From a virus, in IMG/VR virus record IMGVR_UViG_3300029309_000135, positions 1 through 35,095 of that record: a stretch of DNA of 35,095 nucleotides. The stretch is one strand, 5' to 3'. Positions 6,684-18,213 of this stretch are shown here, piece after piece. The notes beneath the pieces are model-generated. The model did no database searches. It had not been told where the DNA came from and worked only from the letters and a program-made list of their open reading frames with translations. The first letter of the stretch is position 1; every line of letters begins with the position of its first letter. A program made the position numbers and the translations under genes.

Positions 6684-7517
6684 ATGGATCCTTTTAAGCT
6701 GACAGAGCCATCTTGTATCAGCTTTAGTGGCGGCAGGACTAGCGCCTATATGTTATGGCGGTTCATAGAAGCTAATGATGGCCTGCCAGATGATTGTATC
6801 GTCACCTTTGCTAACACGGGCAAAGAGGCAGAGGAAACGCTGGAGTTTGTCAGAGACTGCGGGAAGCAGTGGGACGTTCCGATTGTCTGGCTAGAATATC
6901 AGTGGGCAGAAGCAACGAAAGACCGCTTTAAGGTAACTGATTTTTACACTGCTGCTAGGGATGGCGAGCCGTTTGAAGAGGTTATAAGGCTAGCGGGTGT
7001 TCTACCGAATCCTGTTGCGCGCTTCTGTAGCTTAGAGATGAAGGTAAAGACGATTGGCCGATATTTATTTAGCATTGGCATGGTGGAAAAGATCAGTCAT
7101 GGTGAAACATTTAGCATCGTTGGCATCAGGGCTGATGAGCAACGCAGAGCCGCCAAGATAGAGCCGCATCGCAGACCGTTAGTAAGCGCAGGCGTAACTA
7201 AAGAGACGGTCAGCATTTTCTGGAAGGATCAGCCGTTCGACCTTCAATTACCGAATCACAGTGGTGTAACTCCGCACGGCAACTGTGACCTATGCTTTTT
7301 AAAGTCTGCGGGCCTGATTAAATCACTCGTTGAGGAAAAGCCTAGCCGCGCTGATTGGTGGGCCAAAATGGAACGAGAGGTAGCTGCAGCGGGACAGTCA
7401 GGCGGTGTATGGCGACAAGACCGGCCCAGCTATGAACAGATGCAAGTCATTGCCAGAGAGCAAGGACAATTAGATCTGGCAGGGGATGAGACGGTCCCGT
7501 GCTTTTGCGGCGACTGA
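6684..7517 (+). CDS. PAPS reductase / DndC-like PP-loop protein
   Basis: The 277-residue protein belongs to the phosphoadenosine-phosphosulfate reductase superfamily of ATP pyrophosphatases. The PP-loop SGGRTS is at 15-20, preceded by the strand CISF. FANTGKE (42-48) is the second conserved nucleotide-site segment, and GIRADEQRR (147-155) matches the family's arginine-rich motif. Cysteines C115 (RFCSLEMK), C201 and C204 (NCDLCFLK) and C273/C275 (CFCGD at the very end) could hold an Fe-S cluster, as in DndC and some thiolation enzymes. The phage role is not established; adenylation of DNA or a small molecule is possible. ATG 6684 is the only start after the in-frame stop. Confidence 0.87.
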   Translation: MDPFKLTEPSCISFSGGRTSAYMLWRFIEANDGLPDDCIVTFANTGKEAEETLEFVRDCGKQWDVPIVWLEYQWAEATKDRFKVTDFYTAARDGEPFEEVIRLAGVLPNPVARFCSLEMKVKTIGRYLFSIGMVEKISHGETFSIVGIRADEQRRAAKIEPHRRPLVSAGVTKETVSIFWKDQPFDLQLPNHSGVTPHGNCDLCFLKSAGLIKSLVEEKPSRADWWAKMEREVAAAGQSGGVWRQDRPSYEQMQVIAREQGQLDLAGDETVPCFCGD

Positions 7518-7518
7518 T

Positions 7519-7932
7519 ATGAAATTAAAGGTGACGCCAGCAGACGCAGCGTTTAGTAAATGTGTCAAAGAGCGAGCAGAGTGGAAATGCGAACGCTGCG
7601 GCACTCAATATACGGAAGGCCACAGAGGTTTGCATTGCAGTCATGGCATTGGGAGAGGCACATGGGGCACCAGGCTGACAGGACTTAACGCTATTGCCGC
7701 GTGTTACGGCTGTCATCAACTAGAGGGCGGTAACTGGATGCAAAGAATGCTGACAGAGGAGCAGCGTGATTTGCTCACAGAGATGGCTAACGATTTTTTT
7801 AGAGGCAAAGAAGCTCGCAAAACCAAGGGCAAGGGCGCAGTGGCTAAGCATTACCGAGAGCAATATGATCTGATGCGTCAACTGCGAGAGTGCGGTGTCA
7901 CAGGGCGCATCGAGTTTGAGGACTACTTTTAG
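7519..7932 (+). CDS. HNH / NinG-like zinc nuclease
   Basis: The 137-residue protein is read from ATG 7519, one base after the upstream stop. Two zinc knuckles, CERC (24-27) and CYGC (62-65), frame an HNH-type core with SHG at 41-43 (H42), N57 in GLNAIA, and H66 right after the second knuckle. This resembles NinG/Rap, which cleaves branched recombination intermediates, and related HNH nucleases. The C-terminal part is helical and basic (GKEARKTKGKG). Its place after NinB and the PP-loop protein supports a recombination role. A general HNH endonuclease is the alternative. Confidence 0.8.
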   Translation: MKLKVTPADAAFSKCVKERAEWKCERCGTQYTEGHRGLHCSHGIGRGTWGTRLTGLNAIAACYGCHQLEGGNWMQRMLTEEQRDLLTEMANDFFRGKEARKTKGKGAVAKHYREQYDLMRQLRECGVTGRIEFEDYF

Positions 7933-11921: not shown

Positions 11922-13316
11922 ATGCCTGTAAGCACTAAGCACCCGCAGTGGGAACTGTACAAGCCTGTATGGGACAAAACCCGAGACGCAGTACGTGGAT
12001 CGGTGCAGATAAAAGAAAAAAAACACGTCTACCTTCCCGTGCCAGACCCAGAAACAGCAGATGAGCGGCTTGGCGAGAATACTTTACGATATCGTCAATA
12101 CATACGTCGGGCGGTATTTGCCAACTACACCGGTCGCACTAAAAACGCTTTAGTTGGGGCGGCGTTTCGTAAAGCTCCTGTCTACGAGTTGCCGGAAACC
12201 CTGGAGTATTTGATTAATGACGCAACCGGTGACGGCCTTGGGATTGAGCAGTTAGCTAAGGACGAGCTGAGCAATCTGCTGGAAACAGGCCGGACTTTGC
12301 TCCTGGTAGATTTTCCCCAGGCTGACGCAGGGCTGTCTGCAGAAGAGATACAGCGCCTCTCAATACGCGCCTCCATTATCCCCTACCCATGTGAGCAAGT
12401 AGTCAATTGGCGCACAGATACTATCGGCGGCAGGAAGCTAGTCACCATGATCGTGCTGGCAGAGAGCTATAAAACCGCTGACGATGAATTTGAGCATGAT
12501 AGCGAGGTGCAGTATAGGGTTTTGCGCTTGCGGGAGGATGGTTATACCCAGCAGCTATATCGGGAGGAGCAGCCTTTCAGCGCCGAGATCTACCCGAGGA
12601 AGTCAGACGGCAGCACATGGGATGAGATACCGGCGATTTTTGTTGGTGCTAAAAATAACGACAGCACTGTAGATGATGCGCCGCTTGCAGATATAGCCGA
12701 TGTCAATATTGCCCACTATCGCAACTCTGCAGATTATGAAGAATCGTGTTTTATCACCGGACAGCCGACGCTTTTCATTACCCATTCGTTAAACGCAGAC
12801 GAGTTTTTTGACTTTAACCCCGAGGGTATAAAGCTTGGAGCCAGGGCTGGTCATGTGCTGGGCGAGACAGGCAGCGCCTCATTGCTGCAGCCAAACGCAA
12901 ACAATTTAGTCGCAGAGGCCATGAAAGCGAAAGAGGCGCAGATGGTCGCTATTGGCGCTCGTATCATTACTGATCGCGGTAGCAATGAGACAGCAGAAGG
13001 CGCACGCATCCGATTTGCGTCGGAAAATTCCGTGTTAGGCGATATTGTCGGCAACCTAAGCGCAGCGTTGGAGCAATCTCTGGCCTGGTGCGGTGAATTT
13101 ATGGGCGCAAATGGCGACTTGAGCTTTGCTATCAATCGAGAGTTTTATGACAAATCGGTGGATCCGCAGTTAATTATGTCAATGGTGACGTTGATGGATA
13201 GACAGATTATTAGTGACCAGGATATTTTCGACCGATTGAAATCGGCGGGTATTATCGACGGCGCCCGTACGCTCGATGAGGTCAGGGAAGAGCTGGGAGA
13301 TTTGCCGCCGGTATGA
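11922..13316 (+). CDS. Portal protein, DUF4055 family
   Basis: The 464-residue protein has the DUF4055 pattern of portals: RYRQYIRRAVFANYTGRTKN near residues 45-65, ALVGAAFRKAP, a stretch GRTLLLVDFP (about 128-137), and SIIPYPCEQVVNWR (about 160-173). Later blocks include EIPAIFVGAKNND, ADYEESCFITGQPTLFI and ARIITDRGSNETAEGARIRF (near 355-374), where the portal stem is expected. It forms the dodecameric DNA channel at the capsid vertex. It follows terL and precedes the head genes. Its ribosome binding site is poor (only AGG twelve bases upstream). Confidence 0.92.
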   Translation: MPVSTKHPQWELYKPVWDKTRDAVRGSVQIKEKKHVYLPVPDPETADERLGENTLRYRQYIRRAVFANYTGRTKNALVGAAFRKAPVYELPETLEYLINDATGDGLGIEQLAKDELSNLLETGRTLLLVDFPQADAGLSAEEIQRLSIRASIIPYPCEQVVNWRTDTIGGRKLVTMIVLAESYKTADDEFEHDSEVQYRVLRLREDGYTQQLYREEQPFSAEIYPRKSDGSTWDEIPAIFVGAKNNDSTVDDAPLADIADVNIAHYRNSADYEESCFITGQPTLFITHSLNADEFFDFNPEGIKLGARAGHVLGETGSASLLQPNANNLVAEAMKAKEAQMVAIGARIITDRGSNETAEGARIRFASENSVLGDIVGNLSAALEQSLAWCGEFMGANGDLSFAINREFYDKSVDPQLIMSMVTLMDRQIISDQDIFDRLKSAGIIDGARTLDEVREELGDLPPV

Positions 13317-13531
13317 GTAAGGTGCGAACGCCCGCAGGTTACATGGTGCCCGCCAAGTATGTTGCAGGGCTGACAGGGGAGGAGCGGAAGCTGCGATTGC
13401 GCCAGTTAGACGAGATGCGGAAGAAAGGCAAACTACTAGGCCCACTAGCAGGAGATAAGAAGAAAGGAAAGAAAACCCCAGAGAGCAAGCATACCAAGGC
13501 TTACAGGCGGCGTTATGGCAAAAATAAGTGA
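13313..13531 (+). CDS. Lysine/arginine-rich small protein 1 (DUF5824-like pattern)
   Basis: The 72-residue protein overlaps the portal stop by four bases. It opens KVRTPAGYMVPAKYVAGLTG followed by EERKLRLRQLDEMRKKGKLL, and ends KAYRRRYGKNK. The P-x-[KR]-Y-V-x-GL motif then a charged helix resembles small proteins seen in marine phages and, in related form (DUF5824), in giant algal viruses. It has no acidic counterweight, so it should bind nucleic acid or acidic partners. It is the first of five basic genes in a row. Confidence 0.75.
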   Translation: MSKVRTPAGYMVPAKYVAGLTGEERKLRLRQLDEMRKKGKLLGPLAGDKKKGKKTPESKHTKAYRRRYGKNK

Positions 13532-13775
13532 GTCTGCGAAAAAGGCGCTGCAGCGTAAAGCGAAGGAGTCGAAGGCACCCTATGGGGCGCTGAAAGCTAT
13601 ATATATGAAGGGTTTGGGCGCAGCGGTCACATCAGGCCGCAGACCAGGGGTATCCCCGCAGCAGTGGGCAATGGCCCGAGTTAATAGTGTGCTAACTGGC
13701 GGCAAGGCTCGCTCAGTAGATGCGGCACAGTGGAAGCAGATCCAAAAACACCGCAAAGCGAAGCGCGGCAAGTAA
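13515..13775 (+). CDS. Lysine-rich small protein 2 (DUF5872-like pattern)
   Basis: The 86-residue protein begins MAKISESAKKALQRKAKESK. Its core, ALKAIYMKGLGAAVTSGRRP followed by GVSPQQWAMARVNSVLTGG (about 26-64), matches a [YF]-x-[RK]-GLxA-x-x-x-G-x-RPG-x-x-x-x-x-W-x-x-ARV-x-S-x-[LI]-x-G pattern that I associate with DUF5872-type proteins of giant viruses and marine phages. The C-terminus is basic (KHRKAKRGK). It overlaps the previous gene by 17 bases and shares one base with the next. The function of the family is unknown to me. Confidence 0.78.
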   Translation: MAKISESAKKALQRKAKESKAPYGALKAIYMKGLGAAVTSGRRPGVSPQQWAMARVNSVLTGGKARSVDAAQWKQIQKHRKAKRGK

Positions 13776-14059
13776 TGGCAAGAGACCCTAGATTAAAACG
13801 ATTCGGTCTCTCTGGGTACAATAAGCCAAAGAGAACGCCGAAGCACCCAAACAAAAGCCACATGGTATTAGCGAAAGAGGGCGACAAGATTAAGCTGATA
13901 AGATTTGGGCAGCAGGGCGCTCGCACTGCAGGTAAACCAAAGCCTGGGGAAAGTGAGGCAATGAAGAAAAAGCGTGCGAGCTTTAAGTCGAGACACGCCA
14001 AAAACATAGCTAAGGGTAAGATGTCTGCAGCGTTTTGGGCAAATAAGGTGAAATGGTAA
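13775..14059 (+). CDS. Lysine-rich small protein 3 (DUF6321-like)
   Basis: ATG 13775 overlaps the previous stop by one base and gives 94 residues; an upstream in-frame ATG at 13730 lies inside the previous gene. The core has strands SHMVLAKEGDKIKLIRFGQQ (about 28-47), then GARTAGKPKPGES and a conserved RASFKSRHAKNIAKGKMSAA ending FWANKVKW. The RFGQQGA...KRxSFxxRHxxNIxKGKxSAxxWAxKVKW series is distinctive and typical of DUF6321-type proteins. High positive charge suggests a role with packaged DNA or RNA, but this is not established. Confidence 0.82.
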   Translation: MARDPRLKRFGLSGYNKPKRTPKHPNKSHMVLAKEGDKIKLIRFGQQGARTAGKPKPGESEAMKKKRASFKSRHAKNIAKGKMSAAFWANKVKW

Positions 14060-14368: not shown

Positions 14369-16174
14369 GTGTCTGCCGAAGATGATATTTTTGATGCCGT
14401 CACGAGGCATCAGATATTTGTATTGCGTTACGCAAAAGGCCGTGAGCGAGAGGCAGAGGAGTTTATTGCCCGCCAGTTAGAGGAGGTTATATACCGTCTC
14501 GAAACTGGCAACCTGACTGATTTTGGGCGCAGCAGAGCACAGGCCCAAGCAACTGACCTATATCAATATCTAGGAGAGTCAGATAAAGAATACGCAGACG
14601 CGTTTAAATCTAAGCTGGTCGAGTTTGGGGAGTACGAGGCTGAATTCAACCGCACAATGATGCAGAAACACCTGCAGACGGATCTGTCCGTCCCTGCTCC
14701 GATACAAATACAGCAGGCGGCGTTTGCAAACATCATGGGCTTAGAGCCTAGCAAAGGCTACACATTAGGCGGAATGCTGGACGATTTTGGCCCGCTGCAC
14801 CGCGACTTAGTGATTGGTAAGGTTAGAGCAGCCATTGTCCTGGGGGATACTACTAATGAGCTTACATCGGAGATACGTAAACTCGTCGGATTACAAGGTC
14901 GCAAAGCCGCTACTCTGGCGCGTACAGCGGTTAATCATGTCTCTGTACAGGCGCGTAAAGAGACTCTTAAAGAAAATGATGACGTTTTGCTTGGGTACGA
15001 GTGGGTAGCGACCTTAGATAGCCGCACATCTTTGATATGCATGGCCCGCGACGGGGTTATATATAAAGATTACGACAACGACCCAAAGCCTCCGGCGCAC
15101 TTTAACTGCCGCAGCACAATTACCCCCAAAGTTAACCCCGCGTTTGACCTGGGAGCAGATGATATCGGCACTCGCGCAGCCGTGGGCAGCGGTGGGGCTG
15201 GTCCAGTTTCTGCAGGGCTTAACTACGATCAATGGTTACGCAAGCAAAGTGCTGGATTCCAAGACCAGGTGCTCGGCAAATCAAGGGCCAAGCTCTTCCG
15301 AGGCGGTCTGACAATTGATAAATTTATCGATCAAAAGGGAAAAACCCTCACGCTCACGCAATTAAAGCGGGATGATGCCCAGTTTGTTCTGGAGACAGAG
15401 ATAACGCCCAATGTCAGCGTGTCGGGGCGCGTAAAATTTGACGATATCAATGATTGTAAAGATCTTACAGCGGAAGAACTATCACAATTTCTTGATGATA
15501 CGTTATCGCCAGACCTCAAAAAACTTGTGACCAGAATCGAAAGGCCAGCCAAGATATTCGACGGCGAGAAAAACAAAAAAGGTGAGCCTACAGGGTCATA
15601 TTACAGTAGCTATTATAGGAAATTGCATCAGGAAAATTACATAAATGACGATATGAACCGAACGCCTATCACGTTTGCCCATGAGTACGGGCATCATATT
15701 GATTATGAGTTAGGTGACAAAAGATTCCAGGCGTTTAGCGAGGCGAATCCGGCATTTAAAAAAGCGTTTCTGGATGACCGCAAAGAATTGGGATTAAGGG
15801 CTACAAAAACGAAGCAGCAGGCGCTGGATATGTTGAGTCAAGAGCTATATGACGATCAGGTAATGACAAATGCCAAGAACGGCTACACATGGACCGAAAA
15901 GGTTCGCAAAACAAGCTGGTCATCAAAGGCGTCTGATATCGTAGATGCTATGTCTGAGGGCAAATTCTGGAAATCGGGGCATTGGGGCCACGGGCCAAAG
16001 TACTACAAAAACAGGGGGTCCAAAGAAAAAGAAACGTTCGCCAATCTGTTTGCACTGCGTGGAAACCCAGAGGCGTGGGCGTTTTGTCAGCGCCGCTTTC
16101 CGCGTCTGTCAAAGCTATTTGATGAAATTGTAGACGAGTACCTGAAATCAGGGAGAAACACATATGACGGCTGA
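14369..16174 (+). CDS. MuF minor head protein fused to a zinc metallopeptidase
   Basis: The 601-residue protein starts with GTG 14369. The N-terminal half is a MuF-type head morphogenesis domain (core about 150-255). It includes ARTAVNHVSVQARKE, WVATLDSRTSLICMARDG and the typical end PPAHFNCRST (C247, R248) ITP. Residues about 330-601 are a different module with HEYGHH (HExxH at 438-442) inside TFAHEYGHHIDYEL. E555 in KETFANLFAL is a candidate third zinc ligand, as in gluzincin-type toxins. MuF proteins carrying C-terminal enzyme or toxin domains are known in phages. The module may be a head-maturation protease or an injected effector. Neighbours: five basic micro-genes upstream and an overlapping small gene downstream. 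Confidence 0.88.
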   Translation: MSAEDDIFDAVTRHQIFVLRYAKGREREAEEFIARQLEEVIYRLETGNLTDFGRSRAQAQATDLYQYLGESDKEYADAFKSKLVEFGEYEAEFNRTMMQKHLQTDLSVPAPIQIQQAAFANIMGLEPSKGYTLGGMLDDFGPLHRDLVIGKVRAAIVLGDTTNELTSEIRKLVGLQGRKAATLARTAVNHVSVQARKETLKENDDVLLGYEWVATLDSRTSLICMARDGVIYKDYDNDPKPPAHFNCRSTITPKVNPAFDLGADDIGTRAAVGSGGAGPVSAGLNYDQWLRKQSAGFQDQVLGKSRAKLFRGGLTIDKFIDQKGKTLTLTQLKRDDAQFVLETEITPNVSVSGRVKFDDINDCKDLTAEELSQFLDDTLSPDLKKLVTRIERPAKIFDGEKNKKGEPTGSYYSSYYRKLHQENYINDDMNRTPITFAHEYGHHIDYELGDKRFQAFSEANPAFKKAFLDDRKELGLRATKTKQQALDMLSQELYDDQVMTNAKNGYTWTEKVRKTSWSSKASDIVDAMSEGKFWKSGHWGHGPKYYKNRGSKEKETFANLFALRGNPEAWAFCQRRFPRLSKLFDEIVDEYLKSGRNTYDG

Positions 16175-16349
16175 CAAAGTGCTGACCCATAAAGACCTAG
16201 TAAAGATGTATCGCAAAAAATTTGGCAAAGACCCAGAATATAGTGGAGCTGATTGGGCTAGGGTGGGCGCCACGAGACTGATTGTGGAGGCTTTAGATAC
16301 TGGTATACCGATACAAGATGATCCAGTGCCGAAAGGCGTGGATACGTAA
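16164..16349 (+). CDS. Small protein overlapping the MuF-peptidase gene
   Basis: The 61-residue protein begins at ATG 16164, 11 bases inside the upstream gene. It is helical (TADKVLTHKDLVKMYRKKFG) with a second helix (ADWARVGATRLIVEALDTG) and a proline-rich end (IPIQDDPVPKGVDT). No family is recognised. Direct overlap suggests it works with, or is made in ratio to, the MuF-metallopeptidase, for instance as an inhibitor or adaptor. That is inference from position only. Confidence 0.65.
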   Translation: MTADKVLTHKDLVKMYRKKFGKDPEYSGADWARVGATRLIVEALDTGIPIQDDPVPKGVDT

Positions 16350-16387: not shown

Positions 16388-17047
16388 ATGGAAATAGAAG
16401 GTGTAGAGCTGCCGGAAGAGGCTAAAGAGGCCGTAATGGCTAAGTTTAACGAAGAGCTGCAGGCTAGGGTGGAAGAGCAAACCTCTGGCCTCAAGGCTAA
16501 AGTTGATGAGCTGTTAGCGGAAAAAAAGAAGGTCAAAGCGGAACGAGAGGAGGCGCGTCTCGCAGCTAAACTAGAGGCTGAACAAAAAGCCGCTGCGGAG
16601 AACGACTATAAGCAGTTATTTGAGTCGCAGAAAGGCGAGGCGGATACTCTGCGCCGGAAGATCGAGGATATGAATGCCAGTATCACAATGCAGAAAATTT
16701 CTGCAGAAGCTGGTAAAATAGCAGCATCGTTGTCGAAGAACACCCAGAGGGCTGAGCTTCTACAGGATAAAATTAGCCAGAGGCTAACGATTGTTGATGA
16801 TGAAATACGAGTTACCGACGAGAGTGGGCAGCTTACAGTTTCTACCATTGACGAGTTAACCGCGAGTATTCGCGGTAAGTACGATTTCTTAGTAGATGGT
16901 ACGCAGGCGAGTGGCGGCGGGGCCGCACGTTCAGATGGCAGGGCCGAAGAACGAAGCATAGAGATTAGTCGCGTAGAATTTGAAGGTATGAGCCACGCCC
17001 AGCGTGCTGAATTCTTCAAATCTGGCGGCAGAATTTTTGATGACTAA
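16388..17047 (+). CDS. Putative scaffolding protein
   Basis: The 219-residue protein is a long charged coiled coil from about 20 to 120 (EELQARVEEQTSGLKAKVDE, KKKVKAEREEARLAAKLEAE, QKGEADTLRRKIEDMNASIT). A C-terminal part follows with a short beta region (ISQRLTIVDDEIRVTDESGQ), a glycine-rich link (ASGGGAARSDGR) and a final helix (SHAQRAEFFKSGG). This arrangement directly before the coat gene is typical of phage scaffold (GP20-like). The C-terminal helix would bind the coat protein. The ATG at 16388 follows AGAGGTGACGC. Confidence 0.85.
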   Translation: MEIEGVELPEEAKEAVMAKFNEELQARVEEQTSGLKAKVDELLAEKKKVKAEREEARLAAKLEAEQKAAAENDYKQLFESQKGEADTLRRKIEDMNASITMQKISAEAGKIAASLSKNTQRAELLQDKISQRLTIVDDEIRVTDESGQLTVSTIDELTASIRGKYDFLVDGTQASGGGAARSDGRAEERSIEISRVEFEGMSHAQRAEFFKSGGRIFDD

Positions 17048-17058
17048 TTTGGAGGCCC

Positions 17059-18213
17059 ATGATGGCTAATGTATTGACTGATCTCGCGGCGGATATCTAC
17101 AAAGCCGCTGACGTGGTGGGGCGAGAGCTTGTGGGCTTTATCCCTGCTGTAACTATTAATGCGAACGGCTCAGAACGTGTAGCAAAAGGCGACGTGGTAA
17201 GGGCGTCTTTTACACGCGCTGCGACGGCTGTAAATGTCAGTGAGTCAATGTCTGTACCAGAAGGCACCGACCAGACGGTAGATAATAAGACTCTGACGAT
17301 CAATAACAGTCGCGCCGTGCAGATTCCATACACTGGAGAGGATATTCGACACCTAAATAACGGCATCGGATACGAGACCGTGTACGGCGATCAAATCGCA
17401 CAGGCTATGCGCACGCTCTGCAATGAAATAGAAGCAGATCTGTGGGAGGAGGCATACGAAAGCGCCTCCAGGGCCGTAGGGACAGCGGGCACTACGCCGT
17501 TCGCCTCTAACTTTGACGCTATCGCTGACATTCGCCAGATTTTGGCGGATAACGGTATGCCCCAGAACGATGGGCAGGTGTCACTGGTGATGAACACTGC
17601 AGCGGGTGCTAATCTGCGTAAGCAGGCTACCTTACAGCAGGCAAATACCTCTGGCGGCACGGATTTGCTGCGTCAAGGCGTCTTGCTGGACCTGATGGGG
17701 ATTGCAATACGCGAGTCTGCGCAGATTAGCCTGCACACCAAGGGCACTGCGACCGGCTTAGATGCAGCGGGCGGTGAGCCAGTTGGTGAGACATCAATTG
17801 CCTTAGATGGCGGTGATGGCGGATCTCTGCTCCCTGGTGACGTGGTGACGTTTGCGGGTGACTCCAATAACTACGTCATCAATACGGGCTTTACAGCAGC
17901 GTCCGGCACGGCAACGATTGGTGGACCAGGGCTGCAAGCGGCCTTAGCAGACACCACGGAGATGACGATTGGCAACAACTACACGCCAAATATGGCCTTT
18001 CATCGTCGCGCCTTAGAGCTTGCTGTGCGAGCACCAGCGGTGCCAGAGGGCGGTGACTCCGCAGATGACGCTTTGACGGTACAAGACCCTGTTAGCGGTC
18101 TAGTGTTTGAGGTGCGAGTCTATAAAGGCTACCGCAAAACCATGATAGAAGTTGCATCAGCATGGGGCGTGAAGGGCTGGAAATCAGACTTTATCGCTAC
18201 CTTGATGGGCTAA
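17059..18213 (+). CDS. Major capsid protein, P22 gp5-like
   Basis: The 384-residue protein begins MANVLTDLAADIYKAADVVG (second of two ATGs at 17062 also possible) and continues with VGFIPAVTINANGSERVAKG and RAVQIPYTGEDIRHLNNGIG. These features recall the P22 coat family, an HK97 fold. A domain with glycine/aspartate-rich turns (LDGGDGGSLLPGDVVTFAGD at about 250-270 and following strands) would match the family's inserted beta domain. GGAGG at 17050-17054 gives strong translation. The gene is closed by the terminator at 18221. Confidence 0.9.
   Translation: MMANVLTDLAADIYKAADVVGRELVGFIPAVTINANGSERVAKGDVVRASFTRAATAVNVSESMSVPEGTDQTVDNKTLTINNSRAVQIPYTGEDIRHLNNGIGYETVYGDQIAQAMRTLCNEIEADLWEEAYESASRAVGTAGTTPFASNFDAIADIRQILADNGMPQNDGQVSLVMNTAAGANLRKQATLQQANTSGGTDLLRQGVLLDLMGIAIRESAQISLHTKGTATGLDAAGGEPVGETSIALDGGDGGSLLPGDVVTFAGDSNNYVINTGFTAASGTATIGGPGLQAALADTTEMTIGNNYTPNMAFHRRALELAVRAPAVPEGGDSADDALTVQDPVSGLVFEVRVYKGYRKTMIEVASAWGVKGWKSDFIATLMG

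What the first reader, a model, noticed from the sequence alone, without database searches (positions are those of the whole stretch)
14369..16174. MuF head protein carries a C-terminal HExxH metallopeptidase
The sequence shows a MuF-type domain (ending NCRST, C247) followed by an unrelated ~270-residue module with HEYGHH at 438-443 and a candidate third ligand E555 in KETFANLFAL. MuF proteins sit inside the capsid near the portal and can enter the cell with DNA. MuF fusions to toxin or enzyme domains are established in temperate phages. A zinc protease here could mature the head, digest scaffold (no other head protease was recognised), or act on host proteins after injection.
Basis: partly seen in the sequence, partly recalled or inferred. 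Interest (0 to 1): 0.78.

Follow-up and report, generated by a model that had tools for sequence, protein, structure and literature searches.

The report
Swappable protease cassette in phage head
A phage head protein carries, at its tail end, a probable zinc protease module that is exchanged between related phages together with the tiny gene next to it, so it looks like a built-in protease weapon with its own safety catch rather than part of the head-building machinery.

Summary
P0001 (14369-16174) is a MuF protein with a C-terminal zincin module (residues ~338-601) without a significant Pfam or NCBIfam match. H438, E439, H442 and E555 are invariant in 43 non-redundant modules. The predicted fold (pLDDT 90) resembles the lethal factor/Certhrax/PPEP group (Z 12.4).

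A role in head maturation is not supported. In the same MuF clade (80 best of 220 loci), 42 of 74 complete genes end near residue 345 without a protease. The other 32 carry one of two zincins (A, as here, or B), and a 50-80-codon ORF follows each; it follows none of the 39 short genes with enough downstream DNA. In two near-identical phages (97-98% DNA on either side) a block holding the protease and this ORF has been replaced. Here the ORF is 16164-16349.

This is the layout of MuF polymorphic toxins (Jamet 2017; Bxa, Apk2): an injected effector plus cognate immunity. MuF metallopeptidases as a class are published. New, as far as my searches saw, are this zincin family with its partner, the A/B cassette swap, and a clade in which 0 of 29 records searched show an integrase. 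Activity, delivery and immunity are inferred.

The parts
14369..16174 (+). MuF-zincin fusion protein P0001, 601 aa (GTG start)
14819..15121 (+). MuF domain (PF04233, residues 151-251)
   Evidence: TIGR01641
15380..16171 (+). C-terminal zincin module A (residues 338-601); no significant Pfam or NCBIfam match; lethal factor-like predicted fold
15680..15697 (+). HEYGHH, residues 438-443 (H438, E439, H442 invariant; invariant D445 follows)
15986..16003 (+). GHGPKY, residues 540-545 (G540, H541, Y545 invariant)
16031..16033 (+). E555, predicted third zinc ligand (invariant)
16164..16349 (+). 61-aa ORF overlapping the end of the MuF gene by 11 bases; candidate cognate inhibitor/immunity protein
15346..16337 (.). 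exchanged cassette: DNA similarity to L002 stops at 15345 and resumes at 16338; holds the module and nearly all of the small ORF
16388..17047 (+). head scaffolding protein (phrog_206), next gene after the cassette
17059..18213 (+). P22-type coat protein (PF11651)
11922..13316 (+). portal protein (phrog_145; DUF4055 PF13264)

Best explanation
It is a MuF polymorphic-toxin-type cassette. The MuF part holds the protein inside the head near the portal (reported for SPP1 gp7, inferred here). The C-terminal lethal factor-like zincin enters the cell with the DNA and cleaves one or more host proteins, such as defence or regulatory proteins (inferred). The small acidic protein encoded immediately downstream binds and silences the protease in the cell that builds the virions; it is not packaged, so the protease is free in the next cell (inferred). 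Shown here: domain make-up, conserved putative catalytic residues, fold class, pairing with a small ORF, and exchange of protease plus partner as one unit between near-identical heads.
For: MuF and zincin parts. Census of the MuF clade (80 best of 220 loci): 74 complete gene ends, 42 short, 16 module A, 16 module B; a 50-80-codon ORF follows 32 of 32 long genes and 0 of 39 short ones (3 further short genes have only 19-372 bases of downstream DNA); non-redundant 11 A, 11 B, 26 short, same split. Swap: L096 (A) and L098 (B) are 97.3% and 98.4% identical on either side of a replaced block that holds the module and all but the last 7 bases of the partner ORF of L096. L009 shares module and partner with the window, yet its flanks are closer to L002, which has module B. 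On the carrier tree well-supported branches force at least 7 changes of A and 6 of B. Relatives of the module, found at weak E-values (3e-5 to 6e-3), lie at the end of MuF-type proteins in Enterococcus, Streptococcus and Listeria phages with a small ORF behind (5 of 5 loci opened, of 7 records). Two carriers match Phage_min_cap2 instead of PF04233 (L006; L083) and one is Hcp/TssD-like (L171, below cut-off). Partners are acidic, median pI 4.4. Precedents: PMC5576092 and PMC11699363.
Against: No activity, toxicity, packaging or immunity was tested. The partner model is poor (pLDDT 68), so its fold and binding are unknown. Partners are weakly conserved (13-60% identity to the window's), and those of L083 and L086 look unrelated. 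Distance correlations over 10 rows hardly separate module-partner (0.55) from MuF-module (0.50) or MuF-partner (0.40). Independent gains or losses are few: 4 of 4 pairs agree, sign test p 0.125. L171 has no small ORF behind the module. Published MuF toxins were reported only from temperate phages; this record shows no integrase. Only 17 of 35 module-A proteins match PF04233 at E 0.01; 33 of 35 match phrog_4728, 'head morphogenesis', whose profile covers the module too.
Confidence: 0.68

Rival explanations
1. Head protease: the zincin matures the head or digests the scaffold during assembly.
For: It is encoded next to the scaffold gene. No other head protease was recognised in the 30 window proteins scanned against PHROGs (other ORFs were not scanned). 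One PHROG that matches the protein, phrog_595, bears the label 'head maturation protease' (E 6.6e-18; 24 of 35 module-A proteins).
Against: The phrog_595 match covers residues 154-256, the MuF part, not the zincin. 42 of 74 sisters lack a zincin, and 39 of those have a scaffold-sized ORF next. The coat is P22-type, a type that matures without proteolysis (recalled). HS6 and ZX4290 carry a zincin MuF and a separate annotated protease. Of 5 named relatives opened, K1G, Aurca01, phiEap-2 and R3 have short MuF genes; phiH2 is long, with one HELGH.
Confidence: 0.06
2. Self-processing protease: the zincin cuts its own MuF protein (or a partner domain) so that a part is released in the head or after injection, as proposed for polyvalent proteins.
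For: Iyer 2017 (PMC5512222, section 8 read) proposes this for zincins of polyvalent proteins. L049 has MuF, module A and then a further region that looks ADP-ribosyltransferase-like by eye; 1 of 35 members matches the Bxa ADP-ribosyltransferase PHROG (the table not saying which).
Against: Here the zincin is the last domain, so there is no passenger to release. The partner ORF and the A/B exchange are not explained.
Confidence: 0.12
3. The small ORF is not immunity but a chaperone or packaging factor for the long MuF forms.
For: In the census it is adjacent to every long MuF and absent after short ones.
Against: The partner type follows the module, not the carrier: L096 and L098, with near-identical MuF parts, have different partners. 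A chaperone for each module is still possible.
Confidence: 0.17

Closest known systems
MuF polymorphic toxins (Jamet et al. 2017, PMC5576092), including their 20% metallopeptidase members
   Same: MuF N-part in the packaging module, exchangeable C-terminal enzyme, small ORF directly downstream; metallopeptidases already counted among them
   Different: They report toxin forms only in temperate phages, mostly prophages of Firmicutes. Here 0 of 29 records of this clade show a tyrosine or serine integrase (fragments possible), and 32 of 32 extensions are zincins. Which metallopeptidase families they counted could not be read (supplements not available).
Bxa and Apk2 (MuF ADP-ribosyltransferase and alarmone synthetase toxins; passages of PMC11699363 read)
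   Same: MuF-enzyme fusion with adjacent small non-enzymatic immunity protein(s)
   Different: Different enzyme class; there toxicity and immunity were shown by experiment, here inferred
Lethal factor / Certhrax / PPEP group (MEROPS M34, recalled; Pfam ATLF PF07737)
   Same: Zincin-like fold; VIA-align Z 12.4, rmsd 3.3 over 163 residues; HEYGH helix and E555 align in a profile search (E 0.004, the E555 stretch weak)
   Different: 15% identity; the window protein is not matched by PF07737; no cell-entry partner known; it sits on a phage head protein
Zincin-like MPTases of polyvalent proteins (Iyer et al. 2017, PMC5512222)
   Same: Phage-delivered zincins; one widespread clade has an aspartate three residues after HExxH, as D445 here; the N4 virion RNA polymerase one was linked by the authors to lethal factor
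   Different: Those lie in multidomain proteins; section 8 describes no small partner. Assignment to one of their 12 clades was not tested.
Phage-derived metzincin and TIMP-like inhibitor pair of Listeria (PMC8235301; seen in a search listing with the start of the abstract only)
   Same: A protease and an inhibitor-like protein encoded as a pair by a phage remnant
   Different: Secreted protease and a lipoprotein, not a MuF head fusion; no comparison was run

Membership tests
MuF (SPP1 gp7-like) head protein | MuF domain above curated cut-off, gene between portal and scaffold/coat | tested here: met
Zincin metallopeptidase | HExxH on a helix plus a conserved glutamate on a later helix | tested here: met
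   zinc binding and catalysis not tested
Lethal factor-type peptidases (ATLF PF07737 / M34) | same catalytic-domain fold | tested here: met
   Foldseek: first 36 PDB rows are all entries of LF, Certhrax or PPEP, best E 3.3e-3, none at E 0.001; VIA-align Z 12.4
Lethal factor-type peptidases (ATLF PF07737 / M34) | recognised by the curated Pfam model | tested here: not met
   no PF07737 match for the window protein; so filed as 'fold like', not as a member
MuF polymorphic toxin | MuF N-part with variable C-terminal enzyme domain | tested here: met
MuF polymorphic toxin | small ORF (<150 aa) directly downstream of toxin forms but not of short forms | tested here: met
   32 of 32 against 0 of 39
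MuF polymorphic toxin | enzyme domain shared with other delivery families | tested here: inconclusive
   one Hcp/TssD-like carrier below the curated cut-off; one module ORF without MuF in a Ruminococcus MAG
MuF polymorphic toxin | encoded by temperate phages | tested here: inconclusive
   42 records: tyrosine integrase 2, serine recombinase 0, S24 repressor 1; all of these outside the 29 records of the window's MuF clade; records may be fragments. Module B also occurs in two Mu-like phages with a transposase.
MuF polymorphic toxin | toxicity neutralised by the cognate small protein | not testable with these tools
   needs expression experiments
Head maturation protease | needed for head assembly | tested here: not met
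   sisters with a scaffold-sized ORF in the same place lack it; separate protease annotated in HS6 and ZX4290. Indirect: no knock-out

The most novel reading that the evidence does not exclude
Phages of this clade that may never lysogenise carry interchangeable, virion-injected proteases, each with its own tiny inhibitor. The pair works as an early-infection weapon against host defences or rival phages, the inhibitor protecting the phage's own factory, and the two protease types are traded under arms-race pressure. This would extend MuF toxins from temperate competition to lytic host takeover and give phages a protease-inhibitor pair as a portable unit. (Lowered from 0.35 to 0.30 on re-checking, because module B also sits in Mu-like phages with a transposase.)
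Probability: 0.3. Interest if true: 0.82.

Novelty: new variant of a known kind. Interest (0 to 1): 0.6.

Why it matters
It turns a vague 'head morphogenesis protein' label into a testable claim: an injected protease with a cognate inhibitor. If true, it offers new families of compact proteases aimed at bacterial proteins and 53-80-residue protease inhibitors. It also provides a natural swap pair (L096/L098) that isolates one variable, and a way to ask what a phage most needs to cut in the first minutes of infection.

Tried and rejected
Module alone or in the whole protein against Pfam, NCBIfam and, as a single sequence, the PDB gave nothing significant (SPMIP11 at E 0.006, below its cut-off, and lipoprotein FbpB at E 0.41 dismissed). 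The partner structure (pLDDT 68) was too poor to search with. Partner searches: no match for the window's partner in the phage collection or for that of L096 in plasmids; a scan with 4 partners found 4 contigs, all already known with a MuF zincin, so no orphan copy at that sensitivity. The Mantel test did not separate the readings. Module A against B: hhalign 93% probability but only over 65 columns around HExxH, so perhaps one superfamily, not shown to be one family. Rows dropped or misfiled: 6 of 80 loci with an incomplete MuF 3' end; L094 (5' open) left out of the tree; L115 and L118 (module B) misfiled under A by my pattern, and a wrong ORF picked for L116 there; these and L083 and L086 (unlike partners) were left out of or, for L116, corrected in partner alignment A5. 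Literature: six searches; none of the listings, nor the passages and sections I read of PMC5576092, PMC5512222, PMC3482391 and PMC11699363, describes this module-partner exchange. Subscription papers and supplements could not be read.

Full report
What is there. The ORF 14369-16174 encodes 601 aa. A MuF domain lies at 151-251 (PF04233 E 2.7e-15; TIGR01641 E 1e-18); the gene stands between a portal gene and a scaffold plus P22-type coat gene. The record is a 35,095-base virus contig with terminase, portal, coat, tape measure and central tail fibre J-like genes. In the phage collection 1200 records match, none over 80% of the protein; the best listed cover about 1-338 at up to 36% identity. Of five named relatives that I opened, four have MuF genes of 345-358 codons, ending about where the module would begin: K1G, Aurca01, phiEap-2, and R3, which I reached through its portal. 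The fifth, phiH2, has 1202 aa with one HELGH.

The module. Residues 338-601 match no Pfam or NCBIfam family above cut-off. PHROG profiles 4728 and 115 run through it under the labels 'head morphogenesis' and 'minor head protein'. The search pattern partly contains the motif, so this is biased. In the 43 non-redundant of 76 modules, H438, E439, G441, H442, D445, D523, D526, G531, G540, H541, Y545, E555, F557, A558 and P578 never vary. AlphaFold2 gives pLDDT 90.2 and pTM 0.90. Foldseek against the PDB has no hit at E 0.001, but its first 36 rows are all entries of lethal factor, Certhrax or PPEP, best E 3.3e-3. VIA-align gives Z 12.4, rmsd 3.3 over 163 residues for lethal factor and 9.9 for PPEP-1. 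A profile search finds lethal factor at E 0.004; it aligns HEYGH with HEFGH, and in a second stretch, not significant by itself (i-Evalue 16), E555 with a glutamate. That these are zinc ligands of lethal factor is recalled. In the viral fold library 4 matches reach E 0.001; three are named head morphogenesis or minor capsid proteins, one has no name.

Not a head-building part. I searched the MuF part alone (residues 1-335), which does not depend on HExxH (80 best of 220). Of 80 loci, 74 have a complete gene end: 42 short (338-350 aa), 16 with module A, 16 with another HExxH module, B. Of the 42 short genes, 39 have a scaffold-sized ORF next and 3 have too little downstream DNA (19, 167 and 372 bases). 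All 32 long genes are followed by a 50-80-codon ORF that starts between 19 bases before and 13 bases after the end of the gene. After removing near copies the numbers are 26, 11 and 11 with the same split. Module B has its own invariant set including HExGHxxH, Y and E in 11 rows, is only distantly similar to A, and matches 8 records of Pseudoalteromonas, Vibrio and Prochlorococcus phages. In the 3 of these 8 that I opened, a 63-75-codon ORF follows with a four-base overlap. HS6 and ZX4290 have a separate annotated protease; both are Mu-like, with a transposase. Against this, phrog_595, labelled 'head maturation protease', matches the protein, but over the MuF part only (154-256).

A swapped cassette. 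L096 and L098 are 97.3% identical before and 98.4% identical after a block that holds the module and, in L096, all but the last 7 bases of the partner ORF; L096 has A, L098 has B. The window, L002 and L009 tell the same story: L009's flanks are closer to L002 (80-85%) than to the window (74-80%), but L009 shares module and partner with the window, while L002 has module B and a different 58-codon ORF. Similarity between window and L002 stops at 15345 and resumes at 16338 (ORFs). On a tree of 47 carriers the well-supported branches force at least 7 changes of A, 6 of B and 4 of short. The small ORF is present in 20 of 20 long and 0 of 27 short rows, but only 4 phylogenetically independent comparisons exist (4 of 4 agree, p 0.125).

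The partner. In the window it is 16164-16349, 61 aa, overlapping the MuF end by 11 bases. For all 107 long-MuF rows of both searches, many of them redundant, an ORF of 50-82 codons was found within 25 bases of the gene end. Partners of module A share a weak pattern around F20 and A43 (46 rows) and are acidic (median pI 4.4, net charge -7; that set of 50 still held the misfiled L115 and L118, a wrong L116 pick and the unlike L083 and L086). The window's partner has no significant match in Pfam (TRIQK at E 0.09) or PHROGs. Its model is poor. The 5 Enterococcus, Streptococcus and Listeria phage loci opened also have a 56-85-codon ORF at the same place, as do 4 of the 5 genome loci with 73-84 codons. 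The fifth, Paenibacillus L171, has an Hcp/TssD-like carrier (E 3.1e-4, below the curated cut-off; PDB Hcp1 only at E 0.18) and no such ORF. Distance correlations on 10 rows are 0.55 module-partner, 0.50 MuF-module and 0.40 MuF-partner, so they do not decide.

Mechanism. The pattern - fixed MuF carrier, exchangeable enzyme, small gene that travels with the enzyme - is that of polymorphic toxins. Jamet et al. (PMC5576092; sections 7, 8 and 13 and passages read) described MuF toxins, found metallopeptidases in 20% of 191, and small downstream ORFs behind 89.4% of toxin genes against 25.5% of 952 short ones. Bxa (PMC11699363, passages read) is a MuF enzyme that poisons bacteria and is silenced by neighbouring proteins; the paper reports the same of Apk2. 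I therefore read the window gene as an injected protease effector whose small neighbour is its inhibitor. Injection, activity and inhibition are inference. The target is unknown; Jamet et al. suggest lysis-lysogeny steering or resistance to defence for MuF peptidases.

What is new. The class is published. In six literature searches, by listing and the passages named above, I did not see this zincin family with its partner family, the A/B exchange, or such MuF proteases in a clade without visible integrases. I searched 42 records chosen mostly for length, 29 of them from the window's MuF clade, short and long mixed. Tyrosine integrase is in 2 of 42, serine recombinase in 0, S24 repressor in 1; all hits lie outside the 29. 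The window has one HTH_3 match below the cut-off. Records may be fragments, so a lytic lifestyle is suggested, not shown, and module B also occurs in Mu-like phages with a transposase. Selection keeps module A (median dN/dS 0.22, highest 0.60, over 91 non-independent pairs).

Noticed in passing
window 13313-13531 and 13515-13775: Two overlapping small ORFs match the first half (E 0.009, below cut-off) and second half (E 2.3e-11) of DUF5824; L002 has ORFs of the same lengths there (7146-7364, 7348-7608), while DNA similarity to L009 is interrupted across 13322-13764.
   Followed up: partly
window 13730-14059: A 109-aa ORF between portal and MuF matches phrog_7595 and part of a 'minor head protein and DNA pilot' family, perhaps a second head-linked small protein.
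   Followed up: no
L049:192-2771: 860-aa protein with MuF, module A and a further C-terminal region that by eye looks ADP-ribosyltransferase-like; 1 of 35 members scanned matches the Bxa ADP-ribosyltransferase PHROG (member not named).
   Followed up: partly
L171:5245-6612 (Paenibacillus woosongensis): Module A on an Hcp/TssD-like N-part (weak match), a possible non-phage delivery form.
   Followed up: partly
L170:5221-6704 (Ruminococcus MAG): Module ORF without a Pfam MuF match, preceded in the same frame by a separate helical-looking ORF and followed by a partner-like ORF, downstream of an ORF with an ATPase-like stretch by eye; not read through.
   Followed up: no
window 6684-7517: Phosphoadenosine phosphosulfate reductase-like auxiliary gene (phrog_424).
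   Followed up: no
L083 and L086: Module A (HEFGH) with cysteine-containing downstream ORFs unlike the usual partner; the L083 carrier matches Phage_min_cap2. Possibly a different inhibitor.
   Followed up: no
L177:2492-6100 (Pseudomonas phage phiH2): A 1202-aa head protein of the same MuF kin with one HELGH at 527; whether this is module B or another zincin was not tested.
   Followed up: no
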